A stretch of DNA of 64,000 nt from Pseudisothecium myosuroides (lineage: Eukaryota > Streptophyta > Bryopsida > Hypnales > Lembophyllaceae), in the NCBI GenBank assembly GCA_951799445.1, contig OX637293.1, positions 22,382,001 through 22,446,000 on the forward strand, in the 5' to 3' direction. The notes beneath the pieces were generated by a model. It did not search any database, was not told the origin of the DNA, and saw nothing but the letters and a program-made list of their open reading frames with translations. The translations under genes were made by a program, and so were the position numbers. Positions 4,391 through 38,721 of this stretch are shown here, piece by piece; within the stretch, counting starts at the first letter, position 1, and each line of letters opens with the position of its first letter.

Positions 4391-4394
4391 GGGC

Positions 4395-6246: not shown

Positions 6247-6269
6247 CCATCGGGAGATCTTCCCGATGG
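6247..6269. repeat. Family-B palindrome, left-most copy
   Basis: Near-perfect dyad CCATCGGGAGATCT then TCCCGATGG, one base off exact symmetry. It is the first member of a family that runs to about 27.4 kb. Confidence 0.75.
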
Positions 6270-6666
6270 TATGTACAATGAGTCCGTAATGCCGTTCAAA
6301 GGAGATTTAAATCGCTTTGGGATGCTAAGTGGTCTGGAGATTTCCCGGTGCAAGGAAATATACTCCTTCGGGATAGAGTGTTCGAACAAATCAATGAATT
6401 TGAGATGATGTCAACTCCGACATTTGCTGTAAGCGGTACATTTGTATCCGGGGTTGCATTAATATGCGACATCACAGATCGGGAGAGCTCAGAAGATACT
6501 TCCCAAAGTATCACATAACACAAAAGAATGGATGAAGCAACATAATGCAATTACAGACATTTGGTAAGGTGTAATCACAGTCAGATAGAAAAGGTGGATT
6601 CGCCACTTATATAATCATTTGGATGCAACAAACAGGTGATATATAACCCAGCTAGTCCACTTCCAA

Positions 6667-7149
6667 CTACATGTTTTTTGGGGCCCAAGACCAATCAAAA
6701 GGCGGTGCTATAATGTGCGGACGATCTAACTCTACAGGACCTACATCATCCCTCACATGCAACGCCGGTCGAAGCAAGTGCGGACGTTCCCAATCAAGAG
6801 GATCTAGGACAAGCATTACAACACTGTTATTCAAGAGTACCCTGCGCGTCCGAGGAATGTTCAAGACAGTCTTCAGTATTGCATGACGATGGGGATACAC
6901 CTGGTTCTTCCGTGGATTGTCAGACCCGGCAAAAAATAGAAACCTTGACAGAATTTCCGGCGGTAGAATACGTCGAAGAAGAGCGGCCAGTGTTGAAGGT
7001 TGCATTGCGGACCACAAACCACAGTGAGTTTCATGAACGAAATGTCGGAGAAGACCACGGAAGCCGGGCCGAATTTCGATATTCTGTGGGAGATCCGCCA
7101 CACCGCCCTTCACGCAGAGATCCCCTGTTAGTACTAAGAGCATCGCCTT
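6667..7149 (-). pseudogene. Exon encoding a degenerate FCP1-like (HAD, CTD-phosphatase) domain
   Basis: A 160-codon open exon beginning after an acceptor (GGTCTTTGCAG at about 7150) and ending in TAG. It follows the FCP1/NIF pattern of the 8.3-kb exon: a beta strand MLLVLTGDL where the nucleophile motif DxxG should be, then IRPGFRGLLRHFVH, GLWSAMQPSTLAALLRRILP, and RRVLLNNSV where a conserved VDDDP is expected. Both acidic motifs are missing, so it cannot act as a normal HAD phosphatase; it is a pseudo-enzyme or decayed copy. It lies just downstream of the larger minus-strand gene. It could instead be a further exon of that gene, if the donor GCA|GTAGTT just before the 8314 stop is used, giving two tandem FCP1-like domains. 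Confidence 0.5.
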
Positions 7150-8313
7150 CTGCAAAGACCAAGTAAGCCTCAGTACGCAGACATATACATACAGAAACGA
7201 CGTCAATTGATCGTGAGATCCCCCGACCAATATGCAATACAACAGAACCGCTAATTGAAAATACGCATGGGTAGTTATTTGAAGAACAGCGACTGAATGT
7301 CTTATTTGCTGCATAGTGCAAGGAAATTAGCAATACTTCTACGGTGTCACTGCAGCCCAGAATACAGCACTAACAAGGGATGCAGATTTAGAATTCGCGT
7401 CAAATACAAAAAAAGGTTTAGGGTGACATACTAGAAGACCGAAAATACTCAAGCAAAGGAAGTTACGTAGCAGAAATTCAATTGCATTCGATTGAAGCAA
7501 CAAAAATGGACATTACATAATCCGCCTAAGACTAATAATTCGATGCAAGGGAAAATGATCGTGAGATCTTCCGATCAAGCCAAAGACAGAGGACAAAATT
7601 ATCAATTTCAAATCCGTACTTCAGCAAACCGGAACTGCAGGAGAACTCCCAAACAAACAGTAGAAGCACAACTACAACTTCACTGTCATCCACAAGTACA
7701 AAAACACAAGACAATACAAGGACGGAAACAACATTTCAAAGTTCACACGTCACGTCGTATCGTGCGATCTCCTGATGAAGCTTGCCGCGCAAGATGATGA
7801 CGCCCAGTGTTAAAATCTAGTGAAGTGTTCAAAAAATTCCACTCTTCCGAGTAATATGATAAACAATTTCAGAACCAAATTTAGATTAAAGCTGCAAACC
7901 AAGAGTAAGAAAACAATTCTAAGTGAGGGTCATGCTCCGGAAATGCATTCACATTAGATTTAAAAGACAAGGATAAATGCCCAGAACAGTCCGATCTACC
8001 GATAGAATCCACTTCCATGGTATACCATTAGATCTCTAGATGTGCATGCACGCGGATTAATAGTCAAGGTCGAGGTGATCCCTTCAAACTCATAATTATC
8101 TTAATCAAAGGCATTTAGGAAAAAAATTTATTTTCACATTTACTACGAGGCAGAATCAATGCCTCCTACAAACAAAGAATGTCCAGTATTTCGAAAATGC
8201 ATTTACAATATTTACAGTATGTTCAAGAGTTTTAAGCTACAAGCAATAATATGCACGCCAAAAGGAGATCGTGAGATATCACGATGAAGTCCGTCGAGGA
8301 AGAGAAACCAAAA
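7150..8313. other. Spacer with four family-B palindromes
   Basis: Palindrome copies lie near 7204-7226, 7557-7580, 7756-7776 and 8268-8285. The last is an exact 18-bp dyad, ATCGTGAGATATCACGAT. An open frame at 7492-7797 on the plus strand is Gln/Lys-rich and has no support. Otherwise AT-rich. Confidence 0.6.
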
Positions 8314-11300
8314 CTAAACTACTGCCCTCAAAATGTCAGAGCCCGGTCTGGTCAACGGGACCGCCGGTGGCAGACCATTGTGGAGCGGATGCTTCTTGAC
8401 ATACGCCGGCACAGCTTCCTGTGACTTAAACAGACCTCCGAGCCAAGGACTGAGCACCCCCACAAGGTACTGGTCCCTCCAGTCCCCATCAAATTTGTGG
8501 GGGAAAATGGCGCTATGACAATCATTCAGGAGGTTCTTAAGTGGATCGTCATCAACGAGGAGAACATTCTCGGTTGACCTCAAACCCAGCTTAGTGGCGA
8601 AATGATTTAGATCCTTGAGGAAGAAGGGCCTGTCCGGGTGATTGGGGTCTCTGTAGGACGACTTTGTGCAATCTTCCTGCATGAGAACAGGCACGTCCTT
8701 CGCCTTAACAGACGTCCCCGGCAGCATTTGATTCAATACCTTCGTCACATTTGCCGGTGTCATACTGCTCCAGAATGCAATGTTTGCATGTCTGTGCACA
8801 AAGTCAAGTAAATGACCAACATTCGGTCGAAGTGTTACGACGCGTCTGTTCAAATCATTGAATGACCTGTGAACAAGAACTCCATTAAGGTCGAAGACCA
8901 CATAATACCGCCGCTTTTCTACCTGATTCGACGACTTCGCCACCGGTTCAGCAGGCACTCGAAAAACTGCAGAATACAAGAGAAGCACAGAGTCAGTGAC
9001 CGGCCAATTCAAGATTCGTTATCTCGTATGTACATTGACAATAATGTAGGCATGTTATCTGCGGGAGCTCGGACGCTACAAGCTGGCGACCCTTCCGCCC
9101 TCCTTTCGTCGCCCAATCGTCCTCTTTCCCTCTTGCCACCGCTCACTGATCCTTCCCCCCTCCTCTCGACGAGCATTTGCCCCTTTTCACTCTCGTCGGC
9201 GCTCACTGGTCCTCTTTCCCCCTGGTCACCACTGAAAGATCCCGGCTCAAGGTCGTCGTCGCTCGAAGCCACCACCACCCTCCTCCCTCTAACGCCGCCT
9301 TCCAATGCCTCCCACTCTTCGTCTGCATCAGGTGGATCCCCTCCATCATACACTGCACGCGGACCATCCTGAAATATCCATTTAAAGACGGGCTTGTAAA
9401 GGAAACGGTTCGCTCGCCTTACGGATTCCAAATGAATATCCTTGTTGTTATCGAGACGCTTCTTCCCATAGTGGTTTAGACTCGGTAAATGACCAAATGC
9501 TCTCATACGATCAACAAGACAGAACTTCATTATTTCTTCGGCCTCGTAAGGTATGGCCTCTAGCACTTTGTCAGAATGGCACTCACCGTCATCAGGAACC
9601 ACCTCTCCTGCAACCTCCAGTGGAACACTGGAGGCCAGTGAAGCAATGTCGACAATCCTCGCCCGCCCTATGACAGGTTTACTCTTCCTTCCAGGAACAG
9701 GTTTGGGACTCAAGGGGACCAAGTCAACAAGGGTGTCGTTCAGTACAGCAACCGTGATGCCCATCGGCGGGAGAAATCGCTCTCGCACAGTCGTGGGATC
9801 CCCCGACGAAGACAATGCAACCACTCCTTCCTGATGTTCACCCCCCTCGCTCTCTGCCGGATCGCCATGATGAATTGAGACCACTGACTCTTCAACGATC
9901 GTGGGATCCCCCGATCCTTCAGGTCCCGGTGTTCGGCCTTGGTCATCCCTCCCTGCACCACATCAAGAGACAGCTAACACAGTCTCCACAGGTAATGCAT
10001 GGCCCGTCGTGGGATCCCCCGATCCGAGGTGGTCATCATCCCCCTTCGACTCATTCCTCCCCTCGCTGAGGTCGGCAGCATCCTCCCCGCTCTTGACCAG
10101 TGACTCGTTCGTCATCGTGGGATCCCCCGATGCTGGTCGGTGAGTGTCTTCCAGGGTTAATAAGTCGAGGTCCGGAAGCTGTCTGTCAGCTCCTGAAGCA
10201 CGAGATGCCTGCGCATCCTCCTGTTGCGGCTGAGTCGACTTCACAGGCCTCGATGGTAACGGTCCCAAGGCACAAGTCAGAAGCGCTTCTGCCACGACTG
10301 ATGCTTCAGGATTGGGACTCCCAGTCGGCTTCGCTAGCGACTGTTTGCGCTGCACCAACGACTTACTTGGAGTCCACTTGGAGGACCCCCCCTTTCGACT
10401 CTCGAGTGCTGTCTTCCGCGCTCGCTTGGCCGCCTTTGTGCTCCCAGTATCCATTGCGGTGTCGGGTTCCTTGACCGGCGTCTTAAGCGGCTTCCTCTTG
10501 GATATCCTTGGGTCCGTTAATTGGATACCTGAATTCACTTCGCCTGACGACCCGCTGGATATTGGAATTACAATTCGTTCAGCTGGTGACGGCTCTGGAG
10601 TACTCTCATGCTCCTCTGCCAGATCTGCCAGCTCCGCCTGCGCCGAATGAACTTCGGGAACATCGTCTGCATCCTCTGCTCCACTTGGCGCATCCATCAG
10701 CTGCTCTCGCCGGGGGGAGGGAGTCGGAGATTTCGCCTGCGAGAAAGGCAATATCCCACCACAATTGAGCTCAGTTTGCCCTCCCAGATTAGCATGCGAG
10801 AGATATACGCTGCCCAACGTCCGGAGATATCACGATGGTTCAGCAAATAATGCACACTAACCTTAGGGTGCTCAACCGACCTTGTTCCTGAACCCGGTCT
10901 GTGTTGGGTGATGTCTTCGAGTACAGCATCGTCATCATCACTCTCAACTTCCTCGTCCTCGTGTCCGGCCTCCGGAAGAGGAAGGGGTGCCGCCTGCGCA
11001 TGTTTGTCGTCCCAAATCTGCTTGGCGAAGACCTGACTTAACGTCTTCGCTTCCGCTGAATCGACAACTTCCAGCACTTTACCACCTTCCGAATACTGAA
11101 ATACAACAACCGGAAATTAGTGACATTCAAATCCCCGAAATCGAAATGAGATTATCAAAAGAACAAAATAAAAGACAATCGTTGTAGTGCATACCAAGCC
11201 CAGATATGTGAACTCCGGACCCCCGTTGACATTCACAAAGACATAGTCGCTGCAAGCTAGTCCTTCGAATAGAATCAACGCACTGCTGATCTTCAGATAC

Positions 11301-14300
11301 GGCATCTGCTGCCGACGCCAGTAAGGGTAGTCGTCCGGCATATCTTCCGCCTTGTACACCTGAGTCAGGCGGTCCAATCCCGGGAAGAAGCTTTTGAAGC
11401 AAGTCCGCCGCTCGTGCTCTTCGCTGTGCCCAAAAATGAAGACAACAAAGACATTGTACCCGTCTCCGGCCGGAGCTTGAGGGAAGAAGTCTTCGGGCCC
11501 TGCCATGTAGTTCACAACGTGCCAGTCCCACAACCTAGCTTTGACTTCCATCCTTCGTTTCTCTATGTGAGCCACAATCATGTGGAACCCTTCGGCATCT
11601 GTGAGGAGAACGGCGGCAGAGCGGGCTACGATTGTCTGGTCCTGCGGATCATAGTACTCCAGAGCGTCAAAGAGTCTCTTCAACTTCCGCTCTTCAAGAA
11701 TTTTGGCGCGACACCCGCAGGACGTTGACTCGAACATGAACCAGATGTAGAGGTGCTGCTTCTTCTTTCCCCTCCACGCTATGACGTCCCCTGCCGCCAA
11801 GGTGGCGCTGATGTCCCAGCTGCTTTCCTCCATGGTTTTACAGAGATAGTGCTCTGAAAAACCACGTGCATTTGCCTGCACCGATTCTTCCTCCGCCGTC
11901 AGCTTGAAGTACGACTCCCACATTTGGATCACCGACTGCGGAAGGTCAGCTGGGTCGAACGTCCTGTTGAGATTTTTCGTCCGATCCTGCAACCACTTCT
12001 TTCCAGCAGGGGTTTCCATTGCCTTGTTGACCCACATCTCCACATCCTCGTGGTGAATGTTCCTTTCCGTCGCAAACTCGACCCACAAAGAGTCCGGGTA
12101 AGGCTCGTACTCCACCCTCCTCGCCGGTAGCAGATGACCCTTGTAGTGTGACAAGAGTTCGTTCTTCATCGCCCTGACCAACCAAATTTTGGCGCCGGCG
12201 TCTGCAAGAGAGATGATGCGTTTTCCACCTCTCTGTGATTTCGACTTTGCGACGGAGGTCTTCATGCTAATAACCTGGGCTTCGACTTGATCGGCAAGGA
12301 AATTGATGTCCTCCGGTCTAAGTCCGTAAAGGGGCTTGAAGTCGTTTGCCGCCAACGGTTTGCGATCCGTACTCCCCGATACATCGACCAGCCCCGCCGC
12401 GTCGGGAAGGAGACCTGCCATGAATCTCTCCTCTATCTTGATCCATCTCTCAACATCAGCGTCGTTCTCCAGGAAGAGTAGAGGGATTCTCAGTTCGGCG
12501 ATGTCTTTCGCCTTTGCTCCCGCAAATATTGTTGCCACCGACGGCTGAAACGCCTGCCAACCAAAGGAGTAACAGTCAGTACGCGATCCGTAGACAGACC
12601 ACGTGAACACAAGAAGTCCAATAAACAGTCGTGCGATCCCACGATCAGTCAGTTACCACGAGGAAGTCGTTTAGGCAACAGGCAGTCGTGAGATATCACG
12701 ATGAGCCACTATCTTCTACATGCACAATTTGAGAACACCACGCACTGAACCGCCAGCACAAAAAACTAAACTAGCGCTATCTGGTATTTCATATGTTAAA
12801 GTTGTGGGATATCACGATGGCTGCACTCTAACGTAGAACTACCCCTTATCGCAAATCCAGGACTTAGTCGTGGGATACCACGATGACGAGGTTCTAACGT
12901 AATGAAGGTCTGAGATGTAGTGCAGGCTCATCGGGAGATCCCACGATGGTCAGGTAGAGCGCACTCTGATGACCCCCCCAAAAAAATATGTCAACTCTAG
13001 CAGCATTCTTACATTGTACTCTACTGAGTGCGATCTGCCCAATATTGCTGGCTGTGGACTTCCCATACTCCGCCACTTGATTCTTGCGTTCAGCAGCTGC
13101 TTCGTGAAGTTCTGCTCCTTCTGTTCGCCGACGACATCTTGGTTCAGCGCCCGTGAGAAGTGCACTAGGTCTCCGTGGTGATCTTTGTCCGTCCACACAG
13201 GTAAAATATTGAAGGTGGAGGCGAGCTTCTTGTCCTTCTCGGGAATCACACCAAGCCTAATCAGGTCCTTGAATGCCTGGACAGTGTGTTGGCCCCCTAT
13301 TATGTAGTAGTGCGTCTTGGGGTTTTCAAAGATCTCCTTTTTCGGCGCTTGCTTCTCATAGTACGACACTACCTTCGCCGGGCCGTAAGGTCCCGCTTTA
13401 AGGGGAAGCACTGTTATGACTCTGTTCTCCGAGTCATAATCAGGTGTGATTCGTGCCTTCCTCGTCAGCGAATCAAGCCACTCTGCCTGAATTCCCCTGT
13501 ACACGAGCAGTGCCAGAGGTGCCTGGTGGAGATAGTCGTAGTGCACGCGGATGAGCTCTCCTTTGCTGTCACAGACTGGTTTCCTGCCCCATTTGTATAG
13601 GCCACCAAAAGAGTTCTCGTACAGGGTCCTCATCTTATTCATCTCTTCCGGTGTCATCTTCTTCACGTCTGCCTCCCCTAGAGCCACAGCCCTGTGAAGC
13701 GGAAGCGGGGTATCCGGTTTTTTCTTCTTTCCAGATGTCCCAGCTGCGGCTTCAACTTCGTCCCCGGGAGCTCCAACTGCAGACTTCCTCTTCCTGGTCT
13801 TCTTTTTGGAGGACGGCGTGGGAGCAACCGCTGTCACGGCTTGCGGGGGAGCGTTTGTATCTCTTAAGTCTTCCAGGATTGTGTCCCACTGGTTCTTCAG
13901 CTCCTTAGGCTTCCACCGAGGCTTAGACGTGTCCTTGCACATCAGATGTGATCTTGCAGTCACAGACTCGCAAAGAGTGAGGCTGAACTTCGCGTAGTCA
14001 AGGATCAGCCCAAACGTTATGATCTCCCCGGAAAGGGGAACCTTCTCCTCTACAACTAGGAGCGCTGTGTCGTCGTCAAGCCCCTTCATTTCTAGTACCT
14101 TCAGTCCGGCAGTTGGGTGCCCCATTGTCCCATTCACCAGCGTGGGAAGAATAGTGGCGGAGCCGTCACTCTCTGCTTTCCAGGCGATTCCCCAATGCGT
14201 AATTTGCTCGTCGCATCGGAAAAAGGCTTGTGGTGGATGTGGACCTGTGTACTCCAAAGACGTAAAGTAGCAGTCGATGAAGGTACCAAGCTTCCTTGGT

Positions 14301-14332
14301 GTCAGTTCTTCTGGACCTTCGTCGACTTGCAT
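8314..14332 (-). CDS. Large multi-exon protein: ParB/DGQHR-like motif region plus C-terminal FCP1/NIF-like phosphatase
   Basis: Exons with clear splice sites: 14332-13013 (ATG, MQVDEGPEELT), 12553-11195 and 11095-10862, all phase 0. Then an exon from 10736, one covering about 9952-9060, and the last 8966-8314 (TAG). Boundaries near 9960 and 9060 are unresolved: a single TGA at 9963-9965 separates two open stretches in the same frame. Total about 1,700 residues. Exon 1 carries a Lys-rich linker (KKKTRKRK) and, near residue 350, the motif IIGGQHTVQAF, resembling the GxxR/DGQHR box of ParB/sulfiredoxin-fold proteins; this is motif-level evidence only. The exons between 10862 and 9060 are low-complexity, acidic and Ser/Pro-rich, probably disordered. 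The last exon has HAD motifs: FDLNGVLV (nucleophile Asp kept, second Asp replaced by Asn, as in some plant FCP1-like proteins), FWSSM and LLVDDDP. Family-B palindromes lie inside exons and encode SGDPT. Confidence 0.72.
9790..10132. repeat. Four family-B palindromes inside coding exons, encoding SGDPT
   Basis: Copies at about 9790-9809, 9896-9917, 10006-10026 and 10111-10132, each of form GTGGGATCCCCCGA. On the minus strand they are read in the same frame as SSSGDPTTV, GSGDPTIVE, GSGDPTTGH and ASGDPTMTN. All four sit in the disordered middle part of the protein, where a short insertion would be tolerated. Confidence 0.85.
12628..12949. repeat. Five family-B palindromes within intron 1 of the ParB-like/FCP1-like gene
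   Basis: Copies at about 12628-12646, 12684-12703, 12801-12820, 12867-12885 and 12928-12949. Centres vary (GATCCC, GATATC, GATACC) while the outer CGTG/CACG arms stay. The intron (12554-13012) is only about 460 bp, so the palindromes make up a large part of it. Confidence 0.8.
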
Positions 14333-14437
14333 TTCACTGCAGCATGGTAGAAAGAGATGTTAGTTTCCACATTGTTCGATAGAGCAGAATGATGGTGGTG
14401 CGATATTATTCCCGTTCTAACTTTAACTTTTATCCTT

Positions 14438-15112
14438 AGTCGTGGGATCCCACGACGGATGTTATGAAAGCGAAGGAATGGTTTCGTGATCATTTTGATG
14501 ATCTGGTTTCACAAATTACCGTTGTCGTGGGATATCACGATCGGTTACATTCACGGACAGTAGTGGGCAGGTGGTTACTGCATCTCAACTCACTAACTGA
14601 AGGCGTCCCGGCATATGACGACGGCACCAAATAACATAGAATGGATATTGGAATATCTTAGAAGGTGATCGGTGATGATCTGTGAAACTACTGTCTGTCG
14701 TGGGATCCCACGATTGATTGTTCACATAATCAGCGCTATTTATTAACGCGCCTTCATCTCAATTTCTCTACCCACGCTAGACTCTCTCGTCGTGATTTCC
14801 CACGACGGTTTAGTACTTGAATGCTCTATGTAGGTGGCCTTCTAATTGTTAAGTCTGGGTCAGACGCGGTCCTTACTATCCTCCATCGGGGGATCCCCCG
14901 ATGGGTTACTAATCCATTGCCTGGTCTGTGCCTAACCTGTGGTCTGGGTTTAGATTGCGTCTTCACATCTTATCATCGGGGGATCCCTCGATGGGCCACA
15001 AACCCTAAAACTCGTGTGGCCGCGCAGTGGTGGGCGGCTAGGGTTTCAAGTCAGGGATCCTACGATGCTCGAATCTACACAGGGACTGCCCTGTCGTGGG
15101 ATCCCACGATGC
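14438..15112. repeat. Cluster of eight family-B palindromes upstream of the ParB-like/FCP1-like gene
   Basis: Copies at about 14438-14459, 14523-14542, 14696-14715, 14788-14807, 14883-14904 (exact 22-bp dyad, half site CCATCGGGGGA), 14972-14993, 15053-15067 (half) and 15094-15109 (exact, TCGTGGGATCCCACGA). They occupy the 5' flank of the minus-strand gene, where regulatory sites would be expected. A plus-strand open frame across them (14821-15354) reads RGIPRW and SWDPTM from the palindromes and is not a credible gene. Confidence 0.85.
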
Positions 15113-15389
15113 ACGGTTTTAGGGTCACTATCCGTGGTAACAGAGTCACGTACTCATTACCGTGTGTTCTTCTCGGCATATGTACTACCATATTTCTCGG
15201 CCATGTTTATAACGGCGACTATGACAGAGGCTCTACTACCCTCGTTTTCAGCAGAGTGCGTACCAATGCAATTGCAAACAGCCATACCCTAATTATTGGT
15301 ATTGTTTATAACGTAGACATTGCAAGCAAGAAACGGAAAGTAATGAGAATATAGTTCAAAGTAACTTATGGGTCCTTCCAAACTGGGAG

Positions 15390-16409
15390 GTCTGCTGTAC
15401 GCTGGGATGGAGCTGCTGCCATCGTAGCTTCCGCTTGCACGGGTCCGGCCTTGTTTTCAGCTACTACAGAAATGCCCTTCCGCTCTTCGAAAGACTGTGG
15501 CATGAAATTCAAATGCAGAAGAAATTGTAGCTTCAATCATTCACTGAGAATCACAAACTCTTAACTTGTTTCTTCATGACTAGCGAAGTGAATTTAATTG
15601 AAGAGAAGGTAAACTTAAATCATTCTAAAGCGACGGACTAAGTAGCCTATCGCACAGAAAACAAGCGTGTCTGATCATAGTCATAAAATCCCTGCACAAA
15701 CCATGTTCCTAATATCATTCACAAACGAGTACTGTCTAACTAAATAATATACAATGAACTCTTCGCTCCATTCCTCTTTGGGAGCAACATTCCCATTCCT
15801 TACTTCACTTTGCTTCAATTCAAACACTCACAGCAGTCCATACACATTGAACTCTAGTTCGTGAATAACATCCAGGTTACCATTCTAGGGTCTACAGTGA
15901 TGAACCGTGAACTACAATGCGTGAGGAGAGCCTACACCTGCAAGGAGGGCGAGTGCCATACAGCCATTGTATCCATGTACTAGATTCATTTGACAAGCTT
16001 GAATGGGATCAATTCTTTCCAAGCCTAGAAGCTAAACTCCAGAGCAAACGCACACCTCCATGCGATCACAATTCTACAACAAAGAAGTCAAATAATGAAC
16101 CTCACCGCCAGAGAACTACAAAATCAAAATGTAGGTTTTGAGGTTGGACTACAATGAACTAACCTGTTCAATGAGGTGGGTGAAGTCCAGCACCGTGTTG
16201 TTTTTCTCGCGCACAGGTCCGGACGCTTGCGCACCGCCTTCGCCAGGAAATGCTTCACGCACTACCGCACTCCGCCACAAAAATTCGTTCTCCGCGCACA
16301 CACACTCCGCCAGCAAAATTTGAATTATACGCTCCTCTAATGTCCCTCGCCGCGCTCGACTCCGCAAACAGAAGTTCAACGCCCCGCCAACCAAAGAAAC
16401 TCCACACAA
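15390..16409 (-). CDS. Putative two-exon gene fragment, unknown
   Basis: The minus-strand open frame from 16409 (MCGVSLVGGALNFCL) reaches a donor CATTGAACAG|GTTAGT at about 16163. About 650 bp downstream, after ATTTCATGCCACAG, an exon reads LSKERKGISVVAENKAGPVQ to LPVWKDP and stops with TAA near 15371. The downstream frame is clearly coding-like, but the frames on either side of the intron do not match in the simplest splice. This is either a broken copy or an exon boundary I have misplaced. No domain recognised. Confidence 0.3.
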
Positions 16410-18165: not shown

Positions 18166-18179
18166 CTTATGCATGAAAT

Positions 18180-19700
18180 TGCCAGACATTTTTAAAACGA
18201 AACCATTCCATGGGAGGGCCCGTTTCATTCCCAATTTTTTTTACTTCACGTGAATTAGAATTTTGCAATGGGCAAGAAGTAAATAATTATAGTGGTGGAA
18301 TCTAAATCCTAAGAGGAATTCCAACTCCAACAATAGAATTTTATGCATGCATGTATGAACCGTCCATGACATTTTCAAAATGAAGCCATTTCATGGCAGG
18401 GCCCAATATTTTTATTCCCCATTTATTTTAATTCACGTTAAGATGGATTTTTCAACGGGCAAGAAGTAAAAATAGTGGTGGAATCTAAATCCTGAGAGCA
18501 ATTCCAACTTCCACGATAGAATTTTATGCATGCATGTATGAACCATCCATGACAATTTAAAAATGAAGCCATTCCATGGGAGGGCCCGTTGCATTCCCAA
18601 TTTTTTTTACTTCACGTGAATTAGAATTTTGCAATGGGCAAGAAGTGAATAATTATAGTGGTGGAATCTAAATCCTAAGAGCAATTCCAACTTCCACAAT
18701 AGAATTTTATGCATGCATGTATGAACCATCCATGACATTTTCAAAATGAAGCCATTTCATGGCAGGGCCCAATATTTTTATTCCCCATTTATTTTAATTC
18801 ACGTTAAGATGGATTTTTCAACGGGCAAGAAGTAAAAATAGTGGTGGAATCTAAATCCTAAGAGCAATTCCAACTTCCACGATAGAATTTTATGCATGCA
18901 TGTATGAACCATCCATGACATTTTTAAAATGAAGCCATTCCATGGGAGGGCCCGTTTCATTCCCAATTTTTTTTACTTCACGTGAATTAGAATTTTGCAA
19001 TGGGCAAGAAGCGAATAATTATAGTGGTGGAATCTAAATCCTAAGAGCAATTCCAACTTCCACGATAGAATTTTATGCATGCATGTATGAACCATCCATG
19101 ACATTTTTAAAATGAAGCCATTTCATGGCAGGGCCCAATATTTTTATTCCCCATTTATTTTAATTCACGTTAAGATGGATTTTTCAACGGGCAAGAAGTA
19201 AAAATAGTGGTGGAATCTAAATCCTGAGAGCAATTCCAACTTCCACGATAGAATTTTATGCATGCATGTATGAACCATCCATGACGTTTTTAAAATGAAG
19301 CCATTCCATGGCAGGGCCTAACTGTTTCATTCCCAATTTTTTTTTCTTCACGTGAATTAGAATTTTGCAAGGGGCAAGAAGTGAATATAGTGGTGGAATC
19401 TAAATCCTGAGAGCAATTCCAACTTTCATAGTAGAATTTTATGCATGCACGTGTGAAATTCCATGACATTTTTAAAATGAAGCCATAGTTCAATGGCAGG
19501 GCCCGTTTCATTCCCAATTTTTTTATTTTCATGTGAATTAGAATTTTTCAACGGGCAAGACTAGAAAATAGTGGTGGAATTTAAGGTTGGAGCAATTACA
19601 TTTTTCTAAATCAAATTTTATGCATGCATGTATGAAATTTCATGACTTTTTAAATATGATTTAAGCCGTTTCAAGCCATCATGCATTTCATTCCCGATTT
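18180..19700. repeat. 183-bp satellite, eight units, alternating A/B subtypes (366-bp higher-order repeat)
   Basis: The marker TTATGCATGCATG starts at 18341, 18524, 18707, 18890, 19073, 19256, 19439 and 19618: seven intervals, six of exactly 183 bp and the last of 179. Two subtypes alternate. One has GGCAGGGCCCAATATTTTTA (at about 18393, 18759, 19125, spacing 366). The other has GGGAGGGCCCGTT followed by CATTCCCAATTTTTTTT. The last two units are more diverged. A minus-strand open frame at 19290-19532 is just satellite. Confidence 0.92.
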
Positions 19701-20012
19701 TTTGTTTCACATCGGTGGAGATTGTTCAAATAACAATAACAAATAACAATATTACGTACATCGTTGTCAAATAATGATGTAGATGTATACCACGTTCGAT
19801 CATTTCAAAAATCCAGAGGAAGATTGCATGACCTACAATATTCTCATGAATGACATGATTCCAGGTTTAAGCATTCATCACCCGTCAAAGTGCATTAACA
19901 AATTTGAAAGCATTTAACTCATTAAATCATTCAGACTGAGATTTAAAATACAAAATAAATAAATGGTTCAGTTTGTTCTTTGTTCCATCATGATTGCACA
20001 TCCAAAGTCCTT

Positions 20013-20173
20013 CACAAGGGGCTTTTTTGCGTTTCCCTCTCTCACTTTCCCCTATGTAAACAACAATCTTATGACTTTTCATTGTGTCAACGGATTGTGA
20101 CACAACGAGAAGTCATGGATTGCCGTTTACGCAGGAAAAAATGAGAGAGGGAAACGCAAAAAAGCCCCTGGTG
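20013..20173. mobile_element. Hairpin MITE, about 160 bp
   Basis: The left end CACAAGGGGCTTTTTTGCG and the right end CGCAAAAAAGCCCCTGGTG are near-perfect inverted repeats of about 35 bp. They continue inward through TTTCCCTCTCTCA, and the core holds ACTTTTCATTGTGTC paired with a partial match, so the whole element can fold. A candidate 3-bp target duplication CTT flanks it (20010-20012, 20174-20176), which is weak evidence on its own. Confidence 0.7.
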
Positions 20174-20436
20174 CTTTATTTAAAAATTCGTAGATGAAAT
20201 AAAAATTGTGTCAATCATTGTTTAATCCGTAAAGTCCCATATTAAACCATAGGATGTTGTACTACATAACAAGAATTATATATGAAATCAATCTGTTAAC
20301 TGACATTTTTAATTAGCAATATTGAGTTAGATTGAATTTTAAGTTTATATGTTCCCAGTCTGAGATGACGTAAACTTAATTGAGGAAAAAATTGGAAACA
20401 AATAATCAGCGTCATTTTCATTTTTCATAATACCCT

Positions 20437-20665
20437 AAACCCTAAAAGCCGTAAACCATGAACTGCAGACCCTGAAAACGTTAATGTAAAGCGCTGCCAT
20501 TGTATACCCTAAACCCTATTAAACCCTGAAACCCTGAACCCTGAAACCAAGAACCATGACCTTGAAACCGTGAACAATACACTACAACATGTACCCTAAA
20601 CCCTATGACCGTGGACTGTAGACCCTATGACTGTGGACCCTAGACCCTAAGATTGCATTCATTGG
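20437..20665. repeat. Degenerate plant-type telomere-like repeats (CCCTAAA)
   Basis: Several CCCTAAACCCTA units mixed with variants CCCTGAA, CCGTGAA, CCTATGA and CTGTGGA. It is an interstitial, diverged tract rather than a chromosome end, since unrelated sequence follows on both sides. The variant block CCTATGACTGTGGA recurs near 56.46 kb and, diverged, inverted near 63.7 kb. Confidence 0.7.
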
Positions 20666-21980
20666 AATAGAAAATAACAAATATGAACATTCGAGAGTTC
20701 AAACTTTTTGTTGATTCTTTTTGTAAGTGAGGTGTTCCACATGTTTCAGGTGCTCAAGCTTTTGGGTTCACGAGATTTGGTACAGTTCGTTTCTGTAGGA
20801 TACGTATAATCAGGTCGTGTAGGGGAAGAATTCCGAGTATTGATCGGGGAAGCGTGTGACATTCTGTCAAGTGAAAGTCTTCAGAGTTTGATCCGCTTTG
20901 GTCAAAGCATCATTGACTCCTAGAAAACGGTGCAACGATACCATCCTTGAATGCGGCGAATTTCAAAATGTCAGTGAAGAATCGGAATTTCAGTGAAGCC
21001 TGGATTTGCGAAGTTCCAGTCAGAAAGTCAAGAGCCTCACGCCCTCCCTCCTTGTAGTCAAAGATGCGCGGAATTCGAGAATGCAATCAACTTCCGAAGT
21101 GAAGGACCGCACGTACCCCCAGGCCGTTGTTGATTGTGGCACGACATTCAAGAACGCATCCAACATTCGAAATCAAGGATCGCTTGGTGATTTCAAAATT
21201 CGCGGCGGGAATTCAGAGCTGAAGAATTCGAACCAGCCACCTGGTTCATAACCCGAAAAGAACCTGGAGCTTGCTCTTTTTGTCTGCACACGTGAACAGG
21301 CGGAGCAGGCTGCGGAGTGGCGAGTGGGTGTCTGCCGGCGTTGGCGACAGAGTGGGCGTGGAGGCGCACGAAGTTCTGACCGAGCCAGTTGCTGCAAGGT
21401 AAGAATGCATCCCTTGCAAGTGTTATGCGATTCCCAATGTCGAGGATTTTGTAGTCGAATTGACGCCACTGCACTCTGTCACAAACTGAGGATGTCGTAG
21501 ATTGAAAGTGAAACGGAGTCTGCGATAATTTTCTTCGCGCATTGTACTCATTTTGCGAAAAACTCACGTGCTTAAGGGATCACCATGCTGTGGTGACACC
21601 AAGGTTCCTTTTGAATCGCGGGACGGCACTGCCCTGAGGGCAAGTTGATATGAGAACCTTGTATGTGGATGACAACCGGTCAGAACGTCTTCACAAAGTA
21701 GTGAAATTAGGTTGCGCTAGGAATTAGGCGAACTTACATGAGGAAAACCCAGCCATCAAATTCAACTACTTCTAAGAACGTTTCTTATTGTACCCATGGA
21801 GGTTCAGGAGTCTGAATTACAACAAAATCCACTTTAAAAGTAGAGAATTTTTGTACAGTAACTGAGAATAGTTATAGAGTGTCGAATGTCATGAAACCAG
21901 TGACAGGAAACCTAATTTCACGATCATCTGTAGATACGTTAGTCTACGACAGTAGAATACGTGTATATATCCAACATACG
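20666..21980. other. Spacer with a GC-rich patch, no supported gene
   Basis: 21240-21410 is GC-rich and reads SGEWVSAGVGDRVGVEAHEV on the plus strand up to a donor-like CTGCAAG|GTAAGA at about 21402. A 124-codon frame is also open on the minus strand over the same DNA. Neither has a recognisable domain or a second exon I can place. Confidence 0.35.
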
Positions 21981-21985
21981 TAAGC

Positions 21986-22667
21986 ATCGTGGGATCCCAC
22001 GATCTCCGCTTATTGAGCGTGGGCGAGACCTCTCAGTCTTCGAGTATAGAGATATCGCGGTCTGGTAGTCGAGGGATGTTCTATCATTTCGTCGTGGGAT
22101 CCCACGATCGATTGAACCTTGGCTGTGGCCTTCCTGGTGTACGTCTAGGTGCCTTACTTTTCGATGACCGTCATACTCCTCGTCGATCTTGTATAAGCAT
22201 CGTGGGATCTCACGATCACATTTCCGGTTGGCACCAGGTTCTCCTACTCGGGGGGGTTCACAAACACTCTTCCGGATTTTACAGGATACCGAACTCGTGG
22301 GATCCCACGATTGATTGATAATATGTCGGGGACTCATCAGAGTGATTCAGTTTGACCCAGTACTTCATTTATATTTCTGTAGCGGTCTATGTGATCCCTT
22401 AGGAGGATCTTGGAATACCGCGATCTCTGGTTTAAGTGATTAAGCGCCAACAGTGTCGTGGGATCCCACGATGTACTGAACGTTCTTTGGTTAATGTCTT
22501 CTAAACTTCTGCGACGTTTTCCTGGATGCCTTGGCTTCTTCCCAGTGGTTCTGGGACGGCCTTCTTGAGATCGCACTATCGCGTCTGGGCTTTCGAACTT
22601 CTTGTTGACAGTAACTAGATTCACTTGTTCATGTTGCGTTGCCGTGTGATCGTGAGTTCCCACGACT
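21986..22667. repeat. Cluster of six family-B palindromes upstream of the plus-strand DUF7869 gene
   Basis: Copies at 21986-22003 (exact ATCGTGGGATCCCACGAT), about 22092-22107, 22199-22216, 22294-22310, 22455-22472 and 22648-22667. Open frames on both strands over this stretch simply read the palindromes as SWDPT, RGIPR or VGSHD. The cluster ends about 160 bp before the start codon at 22827. Confidence 0.87.
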
Positions 22668-22826
22668 GTACAGACGTTGATGCTTCTGTCCTTCATGTCG
22701 TGAGGTTACAATGCCATGAATGCAGCGCTCTTCTGTAGACATGCCTAACTCCTTGAATGTATGATGTACAGGTTTCACGGATCGTTTTAATCTCGTCCAC
22801 GGGATTCGATAAAGCTCACTCTGACA

Positions 22827-25800
22827 ATGGATTCATTCTGTGAGTCTGCTGCTGACGCGATAGTTCCGTATGTGGACGGAACGCATGTAGAGGGTGAATC
22901 ACAGGATTCCACCGGTGGATGTGAAGCGTTTGTGAATGGTGATTGGGTTAAGCTGTTTGTGCCTGGATTCGGTGAAGTTGGATCAGGAATCGTTAAAGAG
23001 GTTCGTCCCCAGGGCCAGTGGCTGGGTGTGCCCATACCTGTTGAGCCTTGGATTTACATTCTGGTGCGACCTCATTCTGTCAAATTAGAATTCCAGGATT
23101 TGAAATGCTTTCCTTGTCAGAGGGGTATGAACACATTAGAGGATGTTCAAGAGAATGTAGTGTTGTGGAGAGCCGCCGACGTTGTTAGAGCGTCGGGGGA
23201 TCCCCCGATGGATCCATGTCCGTATATTCGTCAAGGAGCCTGGTTTGGACTTGATGTGCATCGGAAGGACGCCGACGGACTCCTCGTTTCCTCGGGTCGT
23301 ATCATTTGCTGGAGTCCGGAGGATCACTTCCAAGAGGAGACACTTGGTGAAGGTTTCCTAGGTGTGACAGTCCTCGATGTTTTTGTGGGTGACACCGAAG
23401 CCATAATGTCTCACGACAGGTGGCCAATTTCGGAGTGCTGGTTTCCCAACGGTCGTTCGTTGAAGGAGACAGTGGATCATTTTGCCGCCATTCCCGATAT
23501 GGACGACCCTCTCGCTTACCTCGGAGGTAGAATGAAAGCACCATATCGGTTTATAGTTTGCAAACCCAATCTGGAACTGAAGGAATCGCAGTACTCCCGC
23601 AAAACGGCAGACGAGGAGATTCGGAAAGTCAGCTCGGAGAAGTGCTGCAGACGTCTGTGTTGTCAGCATTATAACCAGGAGTTCACGCTGTTAGTAAGGC
23701 AGAAGTACTACTTGAAGTCGTTTGACGAGCGCCGTGAATATGGGATTGGAGTGGGAGGACAACTACACGAAAGGTACGGGGAGCGGAAGCGGAAATACGT
23801 CACGCTAGAGGGAGTTGATGTTTGTGGCAAGGCGTGGCACATAATTCACGGCATCCCGAAGTCCACTTACCACAGTTACATCGAGATGTACAACGACGGC
23901 GTCGTATCAGGGACGCACGGAAACACAGGGGTTAAGCGCCCGCGGGCTCGGACTGTTCAGGTCGCTGGGACTATGAAAGCCATTATTGACGAGAATGCGG
24001 ATCAAATGCCCCACCAAATGCGCGGCATCGGGAACGGAAGAACGGACACTCTAAAATTCCTTCCTCCCGGAAGAAATTGGAAACGAGTCCAAGCAGACGC
24101 CAACGAGGTAGTGCCCCTTATCTCCTGTCACTGCTTTATTGATCGTGAGATCTCCCGACGAGATCAATGATCGTGAGATATCACGATCACTGTTCTGGTG
24201 CATTGCTTGTCATTTGCATTCCTTCCCCTTCGCTCGTATCGATGCTTAAGCGTACCGATTCTGGATGTGCAGTTGAATGCCGACTACGGTCTGCCGCCCG
24301 TGAGCCAATCGACTATTAGTAGACTCAAGCGGGAGAACTTCAACAACGTCTCCATTAAGCCTGTCGGAAGTTCGTTTGCAAAATGTACTACGTGCGACGA
24401 CCTACAGCAGTTTATTCTGAAGTCTCCGAAAGGAAGCCCCGAGTACGTGGAGTTCGTGAAGCAGCGGACTCATCATCTGAATCACCAAGCTTCTTGCCGT
24501 CGTTTGTATGCGTCTTGGCGTGAGGAATCCAAACGAGATCCTCGAAGAATTTTATGTATAATTCACGACAAGATGGATACATCCAAGACGGCTCTACCCA
24601 GACTCCGGGTGACAACGAAGGCCACGGCCGGTCTGGGGCAGCTTCCGATGAGCGTTACTGGAATGGTAGCTCATGGCCATGGTGACGGTGCTTACGCCCA
24701 TTATGCTCCATCTTGCTGGCCGGCGGACTCCAACTTCACCATTTCGTCTTTGGCGAGGTTGTTGCGCCGGCTGGAGGGTCCACCTATTCGAGAGGCAGGC
24801 GACCTCTTTCCATATCCGCCGGCTAACTCATTGTTCGAGGCACTGCTTAGAGGAAAGTCTAGATGTATGGACAGCCTAACCCTCACCGAACCTGGAGCTC
24901 GGGTTGGAAGTACCCCTCTTCCTGAAAATTTATATCTTCAGCTTGACAACTCTGCCAAGGATAACAAGAACAAATATCTGATGGCGTTCTTATCCTTGCT
25001 CACTGCACGAGGTGTCTTCAAGGAAATTCAGGTTGGGTTTCTACTAGTCGGATACACTCACGAGGACATCGATGCATATTTCAGCCACCTTTCCAAGGCC
25101 CTGAAGACCAAGAACACTTTTGTCGTTGCTGACCTCATGAAAGCCTTCATGCAGTCCCAAGAACTGTCATTTATGCCGGAGTTCATACAGGAGGTGGGGG
25201 ATTTCAAGTCGTTCGTGGAGGGTTACCAATGCGATCGCGGGGAAAAATTAATTGGATTGGGGGAGATGCACCTGTTCAAGTTCTACGTGGACACTGACGG
25301 GGTCCCCGTCATGAACTTCAAAAGGTCAGCAATTGATTCGAACTGGTTGCCGTCGAAGAAACCTTCTGAACGCATTTGGAAGACAGACAGCAATGGTCGG
25401 CCCATGCTCCCTCACGGCTGTCCTAAGCCTGTTCCGTTTAAGCCCATGTGGGGCAGCGAGGTTCCGATACCGCATGGAAATCAAGAGAAGGCAAGGGAAG
25501 CGGCGCGGAAAGCTACCTTGAACAAGGGTTTCATGCTGGTAGGACTCGAGAAATACATTCAGTACTGGCAATACGGTATTTCTAGATGCGAAGGATTTGC
25601 AACTGCGTTCGGTCCATACGTGGATTACTGGAAGTGTGTTCTCGATGAGCTGAAGGAACCATTACCCGAGTGTCCTCCGGAGTTGGTGGAAGGCTTCTGG
25701 CCACAACATGATTGGAGGGTGGCGCGTAATGGAGTCCCTCGCCCAGGATCGACGGTGAATCCCATGGACGTGATTCCGGAGGAAGAAGAGGAGCCGGAGC

Positions 25801-26210
25801 CTTACTGCGGCCCTGCAAATGAAGCGCCAAGGGAAAGCTTTAATCCATGGCTAGACATACGACCAGGCTGTTGGGTACTTGTCAGACCGGAAGTCCCGGA
25901 ATCATGTGCTGTTTGGTAGGGAAGAGCATTGTCTACTGTATGCAGAGTGGAAGGAGATGTGAATAACGGGAAGTTCTTGCTTCAGTACTGGCGACCCGAT
26001 AACTCCGAAACGAGTCTGGAATTGCTTTATCGGAATTGCTGGTACGGTAAATGGGTCGTTGAAAAAAGTCCCCCCACCTGGGTGGACGCGGGTGCTGCAG
26101 TGTATGCGAATTGGTCCAGGAGAGTGGATCAAAAATCACGGACGTTTCCTCAGAAGAGTAGGGAGGCTGCCTTAGTGAATTTGAATCGGGCAAACGTGGT
26201 GGACCCATGA
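22827..26210 (+). CDS. DUF7869-type transposase-like protein, two exons, one in-frame TAG
   Basis: Exon 1 is 22827-24107 (427 codons, ends NE before GTAGTG); exon 2 is 24273-26210 after CTGGATGTGCAG, phase 0. The N-terminal part has a domain of unknown type (VKLFVPGFGEVGSGIVKEV). The middle reads VTLEGVDVCGKAWHIIHGIP. A CxxC (KCTTCDD) with downstream His and Cys residues suggests zinc binding. The core carries the family-like motifs LYLQLDNSAKDNKNKYL and GFLLVGYTHEDIDAYFS, typical of DUF7869 proteins thought to derive from DDE-type transposases. A TAG at 25917-25919 interrupts the frame, but coding continues: RALSTVCRVEGDVNNGKFLL and on to a TGA. Either one nonsense mutation or read-through. 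A family-B palindrome is inside exon 1 (RASGDPPMDP), and two more fill the 165-bp intron. Confidence 0.8.
23191..23210. repeat. Family-B palindrome inside DUF7869 exon 1
   Basis: CGTCGGGGGATCCCCCGATG, one outer mismatch from symmetry, read in frame as ASGDPPM. This is the same peptide pattern the palindromes encode in the unrelated gene at 8.3-14.3 kb. Confidence 0.85.
24141..24188. repeat. Two family-B palindromes inside the DUF7869 intron
   Basis: One at about 24141-24160 (GATCGTGAGATCTCCCGACG) and an exact 20-bp dyad at 24169-24188 with centre GATATC. Together they occupy almost a third of a 165-bp intron. Confidence 0.85.
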
Positions 26211-26238
26211 TTGAGTGCCTAGTCTGGGGTCGCTACTG

Positions 26239-27610
26239 CCATCGTGGGAACTCCCGACGCACTGTGTCGGTCGTCGCGGCAATCGTGAGATGTCACGATG
26301 CATTCTGCGGGGCGCGACTGCCATCGTGATATCGCACGACGCATTCTACATCCAGTAAGCGCAACCGCAAGTGGGGGTTTCGAAGTACAGTCCGTTGAGT
26401 CAGTAGGACTGTTCTTCGATTAGTTTTTCAGAGCTGCTTTTTGTGACTTGTATATGTAAAATAAATCTGTATGAATATATTAATATGTTTATGATTTCTA
26501 TTCTTTGCGTGCGGCACGGGGGCAACGACTTGATAGCAGAAGCGCGGGATCTCTTTCTTCCTCTCGTCTCCTGAAATGGAAGTGGTTTATGTTTGTATCT
26601 GGAACAGAATACATTGCTCGGGTCACACATGCACTCAAATGAGTCTGAATAATGCATTTCTTTTCTCTCACAGTTACACTGTTGGAATTCTAGTCTTCTA
26701 GGTTTTGCATCTTCACAATTATATAGCGGACATTCAACTAAGTACGAATTTTACTATTTTTTGCAGTGAAAGAACCTTGATGTTCTTTCACAAACTGAAA
26801 CTACTGTCATTATTTTGGATGGAATATTATGTTTACTTAGCCGTTATACATCTTCAGATGTATGTTGAACGTCTGAGCACCTGTGACTCAGTGGTCTATA
26901 GTTCTTCAAATGTCACTGTGAGTAAGTTACTGTGATATGCCCCTATCACTTCGTCATATCCTGACTACCTTAGCTCCACTATGTTAGCAGTCCGTCGGGA
27001 GATCTCCCGGTGAATCCTAGAACCGGACTCCTTATTCCCAAGAGCAATTGCTCATTTGGTAATTGTCAACTGATGTTTGAATTTCAAATCCACTTGTGTG
27101 TACTTCCTTTAAACTCTCGGGATACCATATATCTTTGAAAGAATCGCCCCCCTCGTGCCTTATTGTGAATCATTCTTGATGAACTCGGATATCACTTGCA
27201 CTTTAGCACAAAAATCAAATTGTACCCCACTTCGACACCAAGATTGTCAGTGAAGCCGACTCATATTCTACACCCCCGTCAGGGGATCTCCCGATAGAAT
27301 TATGTGAAGATCAGCGCTCACTGAGGGATTAATATGGGATGGGGGCCATGTTTGCAACAACTGGTGGTCATCGGGGGATCTCTCGATAGGTTCTGAGACT
27401 TCAGTTGTGCTGTAAATTGGATGCCTAAACTACGGAAACCCGGTCCACAGATCTCCCAATACAATCATGTGAACTCTACCACGGATCCGCTATGTTACAA
27501 CTACACGATTTCTTTCATTTCCAAGCACATGAAGCACTCCCCGACATACTTGTGGGTGCTGAATTGGATGCATGCAAAGCGTTCCTATTTCAGGAGATCT
27601 CCAGATCCAT
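26239..27610. repeat. Family-B palindromes downstream of the DUF7869 gene
   Basis: Copies near 26239-26260, 26280-26301 and 26320-26341 (about 40 bp apart), then 26992-27013, 27275-27297 and 27368-27390, with degenerate remnants at about 27440 and 27590. These are the right-most family-B copies I see, apart from a doubtful half site at 36.7 kb. Confidence 0.75.
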
Positions 27611-27737
27611 AGAAAAACATCAGGGGATTTCACCGCCTCTTTACTTCTGGACTATTGAAAGTCCAGAAGTAGTTAAATATGGCATAAAAGGGATTTTACC
27701 TTCATGTGTCGTTTCATTTGAAATGGACAATATTTAG

Positions 27738-38623: not shown

Positions 38624-38721
38624 ATTGCTTAGTAGTAAATCTCCATTCTAGTTTTCTAAGGTCAGTTCAAAAAAATCTTGGCACACACCGCACACTGATG
38701 TGCACCACTTCCTGTGAACAG

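What the first reader, a model, noticed from the sequence alone, without database searches (positions are those of the whole stretch)
6247..27390. Dispersed, exactly symmetric 18-22 bp palindromes (family B) shared by two different genes, in exons, introns and flanks
About 40 copies of a dyad with core TCGTGGGATCCCACGA lie between 6.2 and 27.4 kb. At least three different symmetric versions exist as exact palindromes: centre GGATCC (21986-22003, 15094-15109), centre GATATC (8268-8285, 24169-24188), and a G-rich version at 14883-14904. Changes on one arm are matched on the other, which points to gene conversion between arms, hairpin copying, or selection for a two-fold binding site. I know of comparable behaviour in bacterial palindromic elements (for example in Rickettsia), not as a standard feature of plant nuclear genomes.
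Basis: partly seen in the sequence, partly recalled or inferred. Interest (0 to 1): 0.87.

Follow-up and report, generated by a model that had tools for sequence, protein, structure and literature searches.

The report
Palindromes of a giant moss transposon
The scattered palindromes look like repeated docking sites inside a 21.5-kb jumping gene of what is probably a moss, a jumping gene that also encodes a protein predicted to fold like a bacterial chromosome-partition protein that loads at such palindromes.

Summary
The dyads are real. About 40 lie at 6.2-27.4 kb; the degenerate consensus occurs 22 times in the element against 0 in 100 shuffles. Two of the five named palindromes are not exact.

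They are internal parts of one 21,499-bp DNA transposon, B (6187-27685): perfect 24-bp TIRs, AAAA duplication, and 10 of 10 other paired copies with 4-bp duplications. Exon 1 of one gene has 92 scored genomic matches. The "two genes" are the element's divergent genes: a DUF7869 protein with a DDE-transposase fold, and a large gene whose exon 1 is modelled with a ParB/sulfiredoxin fold and which ends near an NIF phosphatase domain.

Two related families keep the arrangement but use other dyads: GGTTCAGAGCGGCCGCTCTGAACC in element A, into which B is inserted, and TTTAACTCGnnnCGAGTTAAA in family C. Two of four small elements with B's TIR hold B-type dyads.

Best reading: family-specific sites for an element-encoded protein, probably the ParB-fold one, working like CACTA TnpA sites or KorB operators. 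Binding is inferred. Among recent copies changes mostly hit one arm, against arm-copying.

The parts
6183..6186 (.). Target-site duplication, left copy (AAAA)
   Evidence: Letters at both ends identical; 10 of 10 other paired copies have a 4-bp duplication, 9 distinct sequences.
6187..6210 (+). Left terminal inverted repeat of element B, ATGCCATATTTAACTACTTCTGGA
   Evidence: Perfect 24-bp inverted pair with 27662-27685; with up to 2 mismatches 440 forward and 426 reverse in the genome, control 0.
6247..6269 (.). Subterminal dyad CCATCGGGAgatctTCCCGATGG, 61-83 bp from the left end
   Evidence: Sequence; also found as TCGGGAGATCTTCCCG at element position 64 (3 mismatches to the degenerate form).
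7211..8284 (.). Dyads at the 3' side of gene 1: starts 7211, 7559, 7760, 8269
8317..14332 (-). Gene 1 of element B. Modelled exons 14332-13013, 12553-11195, 11095-10862, then from 10736; NIF phosphatase domain in ORF 8317-9018. Splice sites read by eye; the join to the NIF ORF is not shown; an in-frame stop at about 9963-9965 in this copy may be damage or a missed intron
   Evidence: NIF PF03031 E 1.3e-13.
12953..14332 (-). Gene 1 exon 1 (460-aa reading used): ParB/sulfiredoxin-like fold around motif HYYIIGGQHTVQAF
9791..10130 (.). Four exonic dyads exactly 108 bp apart (9791, 9899, 10007, 10115), read on the minus strand as the peptide SGDPT
10820..10835 (.). Degenerate dyad in the modelled third intron of gene 1
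12629..12946 (.). Five dyads in the first intron of gene 1: 12629, 12686, 12802, 12868, 12931
14440..15109 (.). Eight dyads upstream of gene 1: 14440, 14525, 14698, 14790, 14886, 14976, 15050 (very degenerate), 15094; exact palindromes at 14440, 14698, 14886, 15094
   Evidence: less variable than the spacers in 30 loci, 0.0032 against 0.0117.
18185..19659 (.). Central tandem array (183/366-bp unit) between the two divergent genes
21987..22665 (.). Dyads upstream of gene 2: 21987, 22092, 22200, 22295, 22408, 22456, 22563, 22650; exact at 21987, 22092, 22295, 22456
22827..26207 (+). Gene 2 of element B: DUF7869 protein, a DDE-type transposase by fold. Modelled exons 22827-24107 and from 24273; in-frame TAG at 25917-25919 in this copy, with a homologous frame at 25920-26207
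   Evidence: PF25273 E 1.2e-42; fold nearest Mos1, Metnase, retroviral integrases and TnsB; frame continuation by profile.
23193..24186 (.). Dyad in exon 1 of gene 2 (23193, exact) and two in its intron (24143, 24171)
26242..27386 (.). Dyads 3' of gene 2: 26242, 26283, 26324, 26995, 27279, 27371
27590..27605 (.). Degenerate subterminal dyad (TCTGGAGATCTCCTGA read inward), 81-96 bp from the right end
   Evidence: 2 mismatches to the degenerate form.
27662..27685 (-). Right terminal inverted repeat of element B
27686..27689 (.). Target-site duplication, right copy (AAAA)
1..1248 (-). Element A (interrupted by B): part of its DUF7869 gene, which continues left of the window
   Evidence: tblastn E 1.2e-29 and 4.4e-14; DUF7869 profile hits in the window and in L066.
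2482..3259 (.). Element A dyads (TTCAGAGCGGCCGCTCTGAA type) 5' of its DUF7869 gene: 2482, 2749, 2890, 2999, 3064, 3175, 3240
   Evidence: 6-mismatch hits left out.
37123..40683 (.). Element A dyads around its gene 1: 37123, 37177, 37231, 37285, 37393, 37502, 37724, 38037, 38298, 38602, 40582, 40664
   Evidence: 6-mismatch hits left out.
39372..40211 (+). Element A gene-1 exon ending FPLKIINGQHT, likely counterpart of IIGGQHT in B; a stop follows in this copy
   Evidence: hhalign with A1: P 0.0017, best of 118 ORFs, probability only 15.6; genome-wide pairing.
46681..46943 (.). Element A dyads 46681 and 46924
52946..54001 (+). Element A NIF phosphatase domain
   Evidence: PF03031 E 3e-10.
54629..54648 (.). 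Element A dyad beyond the NIF domain

Best explanation
The 6187-27685 stretch is one giant TIR DNA transposon (element B) inserted into a related giant element (A), in a genome that is probably a moss. SHOWN from sequence: TIRs, 4-bp target duplications, many dispersed copies, a DUF7869 gene, a divergent gene 1, an NIF domain, and the dyads as parts of the element. SHOWN by structure model only: DUF7869 has a DDE (RNase H) transposase fold, and gene-1 exon 1 a ParB/sulfiredoxin fold. SUPPORTED by comparison: the dyads are family-specific cis sites. They lie 5' of both genes, in introns and near the ends; the sequence differs between families A, B and C while the placing is alike; and some small elements with B's TIR hold B-type dyads and no genes. 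INFERRED: an element-encoded two-fold-symmetric protein binds them, most likely the ParB-fold product of gene 1. It would load at many dyads to mark and pair the two ends of a 20-kb element for the transposase, and to repress the element's own two promoters.
For: TIR pair; TSD 10 of 10 plus window; 440+426 TIR matches, control 0; 92 scored exon-1 matches at 91-100% identity, the window's own included, out of 445 first-look candidates; 905 exact dyads, control 0, in the same internal spacing at C1:1.98-1.99 Mb as in the window (258, 396 bp; then 105, 203, 161 bp). DUF7869 match and DDE fold. ParB fold, 8 of the 8 best rows, noted as a question from the GGQHT motif beforehand. Element A carries DUF7869, NIF and an IINGQHT exon with a different dyad. 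II[N/D]GQHT pattern: 24 hits in 388 Mb, control 0; 24 of 24 lie 9.9-40 kb from one of 32 A-like DUF7869 loci, in divergent orientation, where about 0.7% of the genome lies that near. An exact A dyad lies within 5 kb of 15 of 16 listed motifs, at +387 from the motif in 12 of the 16, against +391 (1 mismatch) in the window element, whose transposase exon is about 57% identical to theirs. Third dyad type in family C, 131 sites, control 0; 29 of the first 50 within 30 kb of the 78 listed C-like DUF7869 loci, all 29 on their 5' side. Five non-B loci with the exact TIR: exact or 1-mismatch dyads in 3 of 5, and in 2 of the 4 whose second end was found.
Confidence: 0.72

Rival explanations
1. The dyads are bound by the DUF7869 transposase itself (like internal or subterminal transposase sites of hAT or P elements), and the ParB-fold protein does something else.
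For: Degenerate dyads occur 61-96 bp from both B ends and better ones in small relatives; transposases commonly bind subterminal repeats (recalled).
Against: Most dyads lie kilobases from the ends, 5' of both genes and in introns, an odd place for transposase sites. In the CACTA plant system a separate protein does the subterminal binding (PMC2613891, passages).
Confidence: 0.25
2. The dyads are operators for self-repression only: a gene product binds near both promoters and keeps the element quiet, with no role in moving it.
For: Clusters 14440-15109 and 21987-22665 sit 5' of the two divergent genes; families A and C also have clusters 5' of the DUF7869 gene.
Against: Two gene-less elements of 227 and 259 bp (L007, L014) hold dyads, and degenerate dyads lie near both B ends.
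Confidence: 0.2
3. Arms are copied onto each other (hairpin or template-switch correction of quasi-palindromes), so that symmetry is a mutational product.
For: Among 24-bp relatives three symmetric double variants are listed: GTGGGATCCCAC, GGGAGATCTCCC and GAGAGATCTCTC. In the window copy an A-to-C change at 14886-14901 made the site symmetric, and 4 of 30 copies are symmetric at 12868 where 26 are not.
Against: Most variants among copies break one arm and stay unmatched, many at CpG positions; only 9 of the 39 sites in the window copy are exact over 16 bp.
Confidence: 0.12
4. The dyads are independent mobile palindromic units (as in Rickettsia palindromic elements) that insert into genes.
For: Presence in exons and introns, with an in-frame peptide SGDPT at four sites.
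Against: 42 of 50 listed dyads lie by element copies, in fixed internal register at two other copies compared; the genes that hold them in the window are the transposon's own; the four exonic sites repeat every 108 bp.
Confidence: 0.03

Closest known systems
CACTA (En/Spm-type) transposons, for example soybean Tgmt*, 20.5 kb (PMC2613891, passages seen)
   Same: Plant nuclear TIR element of about 20 kb with a transposase and a second DNA-binding function; repeated motifs, some able to form palindromes; motif and presumed binding protein differ between subfamilies, and the motifs are cis determinants.
   Different: CACTA TIR and 3-bp duplication there; here an ATGCC TIR and a 4-bp duplication. 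Motifs there are subterminal, here mostly internal at both promoters and in introns. Transposase with a Tnp2 domain there, DUF7869 here. No ParB fold or NIF phosphatase is mentioned in the passages seen.
KorB and its operator OB on plasmid RK2; ParB-parS, Noc (PMC11790492, abstract and passages seen)
   Same: ParB-fold protein and short sites (OB is described as 16 bp) placed near promoters and at a distance on one mobile DNA; for the predicted fold KorB, Noc and ParB are the best matches.
   Different: Bacterial, CTP-dependent sliding clamp; here eukaryotic, no sequence match, CTP motif not conserved, binding untested.
DGQHR / DndB-like ParB-superfamily proteins (recalled)
   Same: The GQH core of GGQHT and NGQHT resembles DGQH(R).
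   Different: No such NCBIfam model matched any of 21 members at E up to 1.
Mos1/mariner and other DDE transposases
   Different: TA target and small elements there (recalled); 4-bp varied targets and a 21.5-kb element here; no transposase among PDB sequence matches at E up to 1.

Membership tests
Cut-and-paste TIR DNA transposon (class II) | Terminal inverted repeats | tested here: met
   24-bp perfect pair.
Cut-and-paste TIR DNA transposon (class II) | Fixed-length target-site duplication at several insertions | tested here: met
   4 bp in 10 of 10 pairs plus the window.
Cut-and-paste TIR DNA transposon (class II) | DDE transposase encoded | tested here: met
   By fold model only: Mos1, Metnase, integrases, TnsB; catalysis untested.
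CACTA superfamily | TIR beginning CACTA | tested here: not met
   TIR begins ATGCC.
CACTA superfamily | 3-bp target duplication | tested here: not met
   4 bp.
CACTA superfamily | Tnp2-type transposase domain | tested here: not met
   Exon 2 of gene 2 matches DUF7869 only, exon 1 nothing, Pfam E up to 1.
ParB / KorB / Noc family | ParB/Srx N-terminal fold | tested here: met
ParB / KorB / Noc family | Sequence match to a ParB family model | tested here: not met
   No ParB or DGQHR model for any of 21 members in NCBIfam or Pfam at E up to 1.
ParB / KorB / Noc family | GERRxRA-type CTP-binding motif | tested here: not met
   GGQHTVQA; G346, G347, H349 and T350 invariant and Q348 nearly so in A1; the ParB motif is recalled.
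ParB / KorB / Noc family | HTH domain after the N-domain | tested here: inconclusive
   Residues 401-410 and 429-460 of the model are below pLDDT 50.
ParB / KorB / Noc family | Short palindromic cis sites on the same replicon or element | tested here: met
ParB / KorB / Noc family | Binds those sites; CTP-dependent sliding | not testable with these tools
   Needs protein.
Rickettsia-type palindromic elements | Units dispersed independently of a larger carrier | tested here: not met
   42 of 50 listed by element copies, fixed internal register.
MITE derivatives of element B | Short, same TIR, same duplication length | tested here: met
   3 of 5 non-B loci: L007 227 bp (AAAA/AAAA), L009 159 or 257 bp (ACTA/ACTA), L014 259 bp (TGCC/TGCC). 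Not L018 (236 bp, AATT/CATT) nor L008 (no second end found).

The most novel reading that the evidence does not exclude
A eukaryotic ParB-parS-like system: the element's ParB-fold protein loads at tens of family-specific dyads and spreads along 20-40 kb of transposon DNA, so that the whole element is recognised, silenced and paired end to end as one unit. Dyad and protein would co-evolve family by family across a large DUF7869 transposon group of mosses for which I found no description.
Probability: 0.3. Interest if true: 0.88.

Novelty: new variant of a known kind. Interest (0 to 1): 0.72.

Why it matters
It turns an odd run of palindromes into a defined system: giant, abundant, recently active transposons with two divergent genes, a DDE protein hidden behind an uncharacterised Pfam domain, a partner protein with a bacterial partition-type fold, and family-specific dyads. 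If the partner binds the dyads, it would be a natural set of matched protein-site pairs for asking how very large transposons find their two ends, and whether a ParB-like protein works on chromatin. It would also explain thousands of dyads in this genome and suggest a function for DUF7869.

Tried and rejected
Rejected: chance; independent palindromic insertion units; arm-to-arm copying as the main cause; membership in CACTA. Rfam and tRNA searches of the window were empty. A homolog search with residues 220-600 of the spliced gene-1 protein found nothing at E 0.001, but exon 1 alone found 20; the first failure may be due to the length filter. No PDB sequence match to exon 1, alone at E 1 or as profile at E 10. 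I first thought that each family has its own dyad without exception; that holds for A, B and C, but a family at about 57% transposase identity to A keeps A's dyad. A peptide SGDPP in P0095 and P0045 looked like dyad read-through; in P0045 it aligns with ordinary coding sequence by eye, and P0095 cannot be checked without DNA. TIRs of element A were not found. Dyad constraint at the element ends was not seen. Two Pfam hits of 21 members to DUF6551 (best E 0.029) were not followed up.

Papers: no paper held the word DUF7869 or both ParB-like and eukaryotic transposon. The searches gave longer lists of which only the rows shown were looked at (titles and starts of abstracts); none of those rows was on this group. 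The library holds open-licence PMC papers only, so none of this shows that the group is undescribed.
Full report
WHAT WAS CLAIMED AND WHAT IS THERE. A scan of the window gives 44 near matches, 40 of them in 7211-27386; I dropped one weak exonic match (11977) and kept 39, plus one dyad at 6247-6269 that the scan missed. The density is far above chance: degenerate form 22 in the element, 0 in 100 shuffles and 0 in the rest of the window; exact palindromes of at least 16 bp 9 against a shuffle mean of 0.4. Three of the five named palindromes are exact, two (8268-8285, 24169-24188) are not.

THE CARRIER. The dyads stop where a perfect 24-bp inverted pair stands, 6187-6210 and 27662-27685, flanked by AAAA on both sides. 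The same TIR with up to 2 mismatches occurs 440 times forward and 426 times reverse in the 388-Mb genome, its reversed control never. The ten pairs of exact TIRs that I had as loci all show a 4-bp duplication (10 of 10: ACAA, ACCT, AATT, AAAT, AAGG, TCAA, GGGG, AAGG, AAGT, GGAT). A copy on C1 is 21,155 bp, collinear and 96.7-98.8% identical in the two long blocks. Exon 1 of one gene gives 92 scored matches at 91-100% identity (window included; 445 candidates at first look), 48 of 92 by my count without an inside stop. The exact dyad occurs at 905 places, control 0, with the window's internal spacing repeated at C1:1.98-1.99 Mb. So this is a giant, abundant, probably recently active DNA transposon, here called B.

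ELEMENT A AND NESTING. Outside B the window holds a second dyad family, GGTTCAGAGCGGCCGCTCTGAACC, at 2.5-3.3, 37-47 and 54.6 kb, together with a DUF7869 gene at the left edge and an NIF domain at 52946-54001. Its exon 39372-40211 ends FPLKIINGQHT; the profile match is weak by itself (P 0.0017, best of 118 ORFs). A genome-wide test is strong: the back-translated II[N/D]GQHT pattern hits 24 places, control 0, and 24 of 24 lie 9.9-40 kb from one of 32 A-like DUF7869 loci, all divergent, while about 0.7% of the genome lies that near. The 32 are the rows at 46-100% identity, split by me from the 78 rows at 33-38%. Most of the 24 are copies of one family; the motif has three spellings. B therefore sits inside a relative with the same plan and other dyads. 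TIRs of A were not found.

DYADS FOLLOW FAMILIES. The A dyad occurs at 236 places with up to 1 mismatch, control 0. Of the 16 motifs on the part of the genome that the capped list covers, 15 have an exact A dyad within 5 kb: 12 have one at +387, and all 15 have at least one at -2316 to -2530. The window element has one at +391 with 1 mismatch (40582), although its transposase exon is only about 57% identical to theirs. Of the 50 exact A dyads listed, 40 lie within 45 kb of a listed motif. Family C (L070, DUF7869 38% identical to A over the exon searched) has TTTAACTCGnnnCGAGTTAAA 5' of its DUF7869 gene in 115-bp steps; 131 sites, control 0; 29 of the first 50 lie within 30 kb of the 78 C-like loci, 1.2% expected, all 29 on the 5' side, most at about -1 to -2.4 kb or -10.7 to -12.6 kb, others at -5 to -5.7, -17 and -19.8 kb. 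The 21 others had no listed C-like locus near; the list holds 110 of 759 candidates. The sequence differs between these families while the placing is alike.

SMALL RELATIVES. Of the 30 TIR loci, 25 begin like B ends (13 left, 12 right); one of these, L015, leaves B after about 99 bp. The other five share with B by blastn only the first 45 bp or less: L007 227 bp, L009 159 or 257 bp, L014 259 bp, L018 236 bp, L008 with no second end found; L007, L009 and L014 show 4-bp duplications, L018 does not. L014 has three B-type dyads (0, 1, 1 mismatches to the degenerate form), L007 one inside an exact 24-bp palindrome, L008 one with 1 mismatch; L009 and L018 none with fewer than 4 mismatches. The 24-bp form AACATCGTGAGATCTCACGATGTT with up to 2 mismatches occurs at 107 places, control 0, and three other fully symmetric variants are among those listed. 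Elements of a few hundred bases that hold TIR and dyads but no gene argue for a cis role in movement.

SYMMETRY AND CONSERVATION. In 30 loci (window included) dyad columns (with one base on each side) 5' of gene 1 vary less than their spacers (0.0032 against 0.0117), in intron 1 slightly (0.0081 against 0.0119). At the ends there is no such difference (left 0.0120 against 0.0106; right 0.094 against 0.082, the right set including L015 and other poorly aligned rows). Against the C1 copy, 7 of 624 dyad letters differ against 376 of 19,122 others (1.1% against 2.0%). Most variants are one-arm changes, many at CpG. Symmetry is thus more a property of the site type over long times than something restored in each copy.

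HOW IT PROBABLY WORKS. A two-fold-symmetric protein of the element recognises the dyad. Gene 1 is the better candidate: it travels with the dyads in A and B, its fold class loads at short palindromes, and in CACTA elements such a second protein does this (PMC2613891, passages). Sites at both promoters fit self-repression, as KorB does with 16-bp OB sites near and far from promoters (PMC11790492, abstract and passages); sites near the ends and in small elements fit end marking or synapsis. The DUF7869 protein would cut and join. The role of the NIF phosphatase is open. All binding steps are inferred.

Noticed in passing
window 1-6182 and 27690-54648 plus L066: A second giant element (A) of the same group, interrupted by B; its own TIRs were not found.
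   Followed up: partly
window 18185-19659; L070:2197-4139: B has a central tandem array between its divergent genes (183/366 bp); family C has one of 169-173 bp 5' of its DUF7869 gene.
   Followed up: no
window 20429-20660: Degenerate CCCTAAA telomere-like repeats inside element B, between its two genes (seen by eye).
   Followed up: no
window 20020-20175: An inverted pair of roughly 45 bp around GCTTTTTTGCGTTTCCCTCTCTCA, MITE-like, inside element B (seen by eye).
   Followed up: no
window 6667-7326 (minus): A second, degenerate ORF faintly resembling the NIF domain of gene 1 (tblastn E about 0.01; no Pfam hit).
   Followed up: no
window 60407-60454: An exact 48-bp palindrome without a spacer, unlike either dyad family.
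   Followed up: no
window 29622-30116: A 42/131-bp tandem array between B and the right part of element A.
   Followed up: no
genome: The II.GQHT pattern has 219 hits (control 1) with several other spellings, so further families of this group probably exist whose dyads are unknown.
   Followed up: partly
G000:C1:26984147 and C1:43361040: Two exact B dyads near no listed element end or exon copy and not among the listed 24-bp forms.
   Followed up: no
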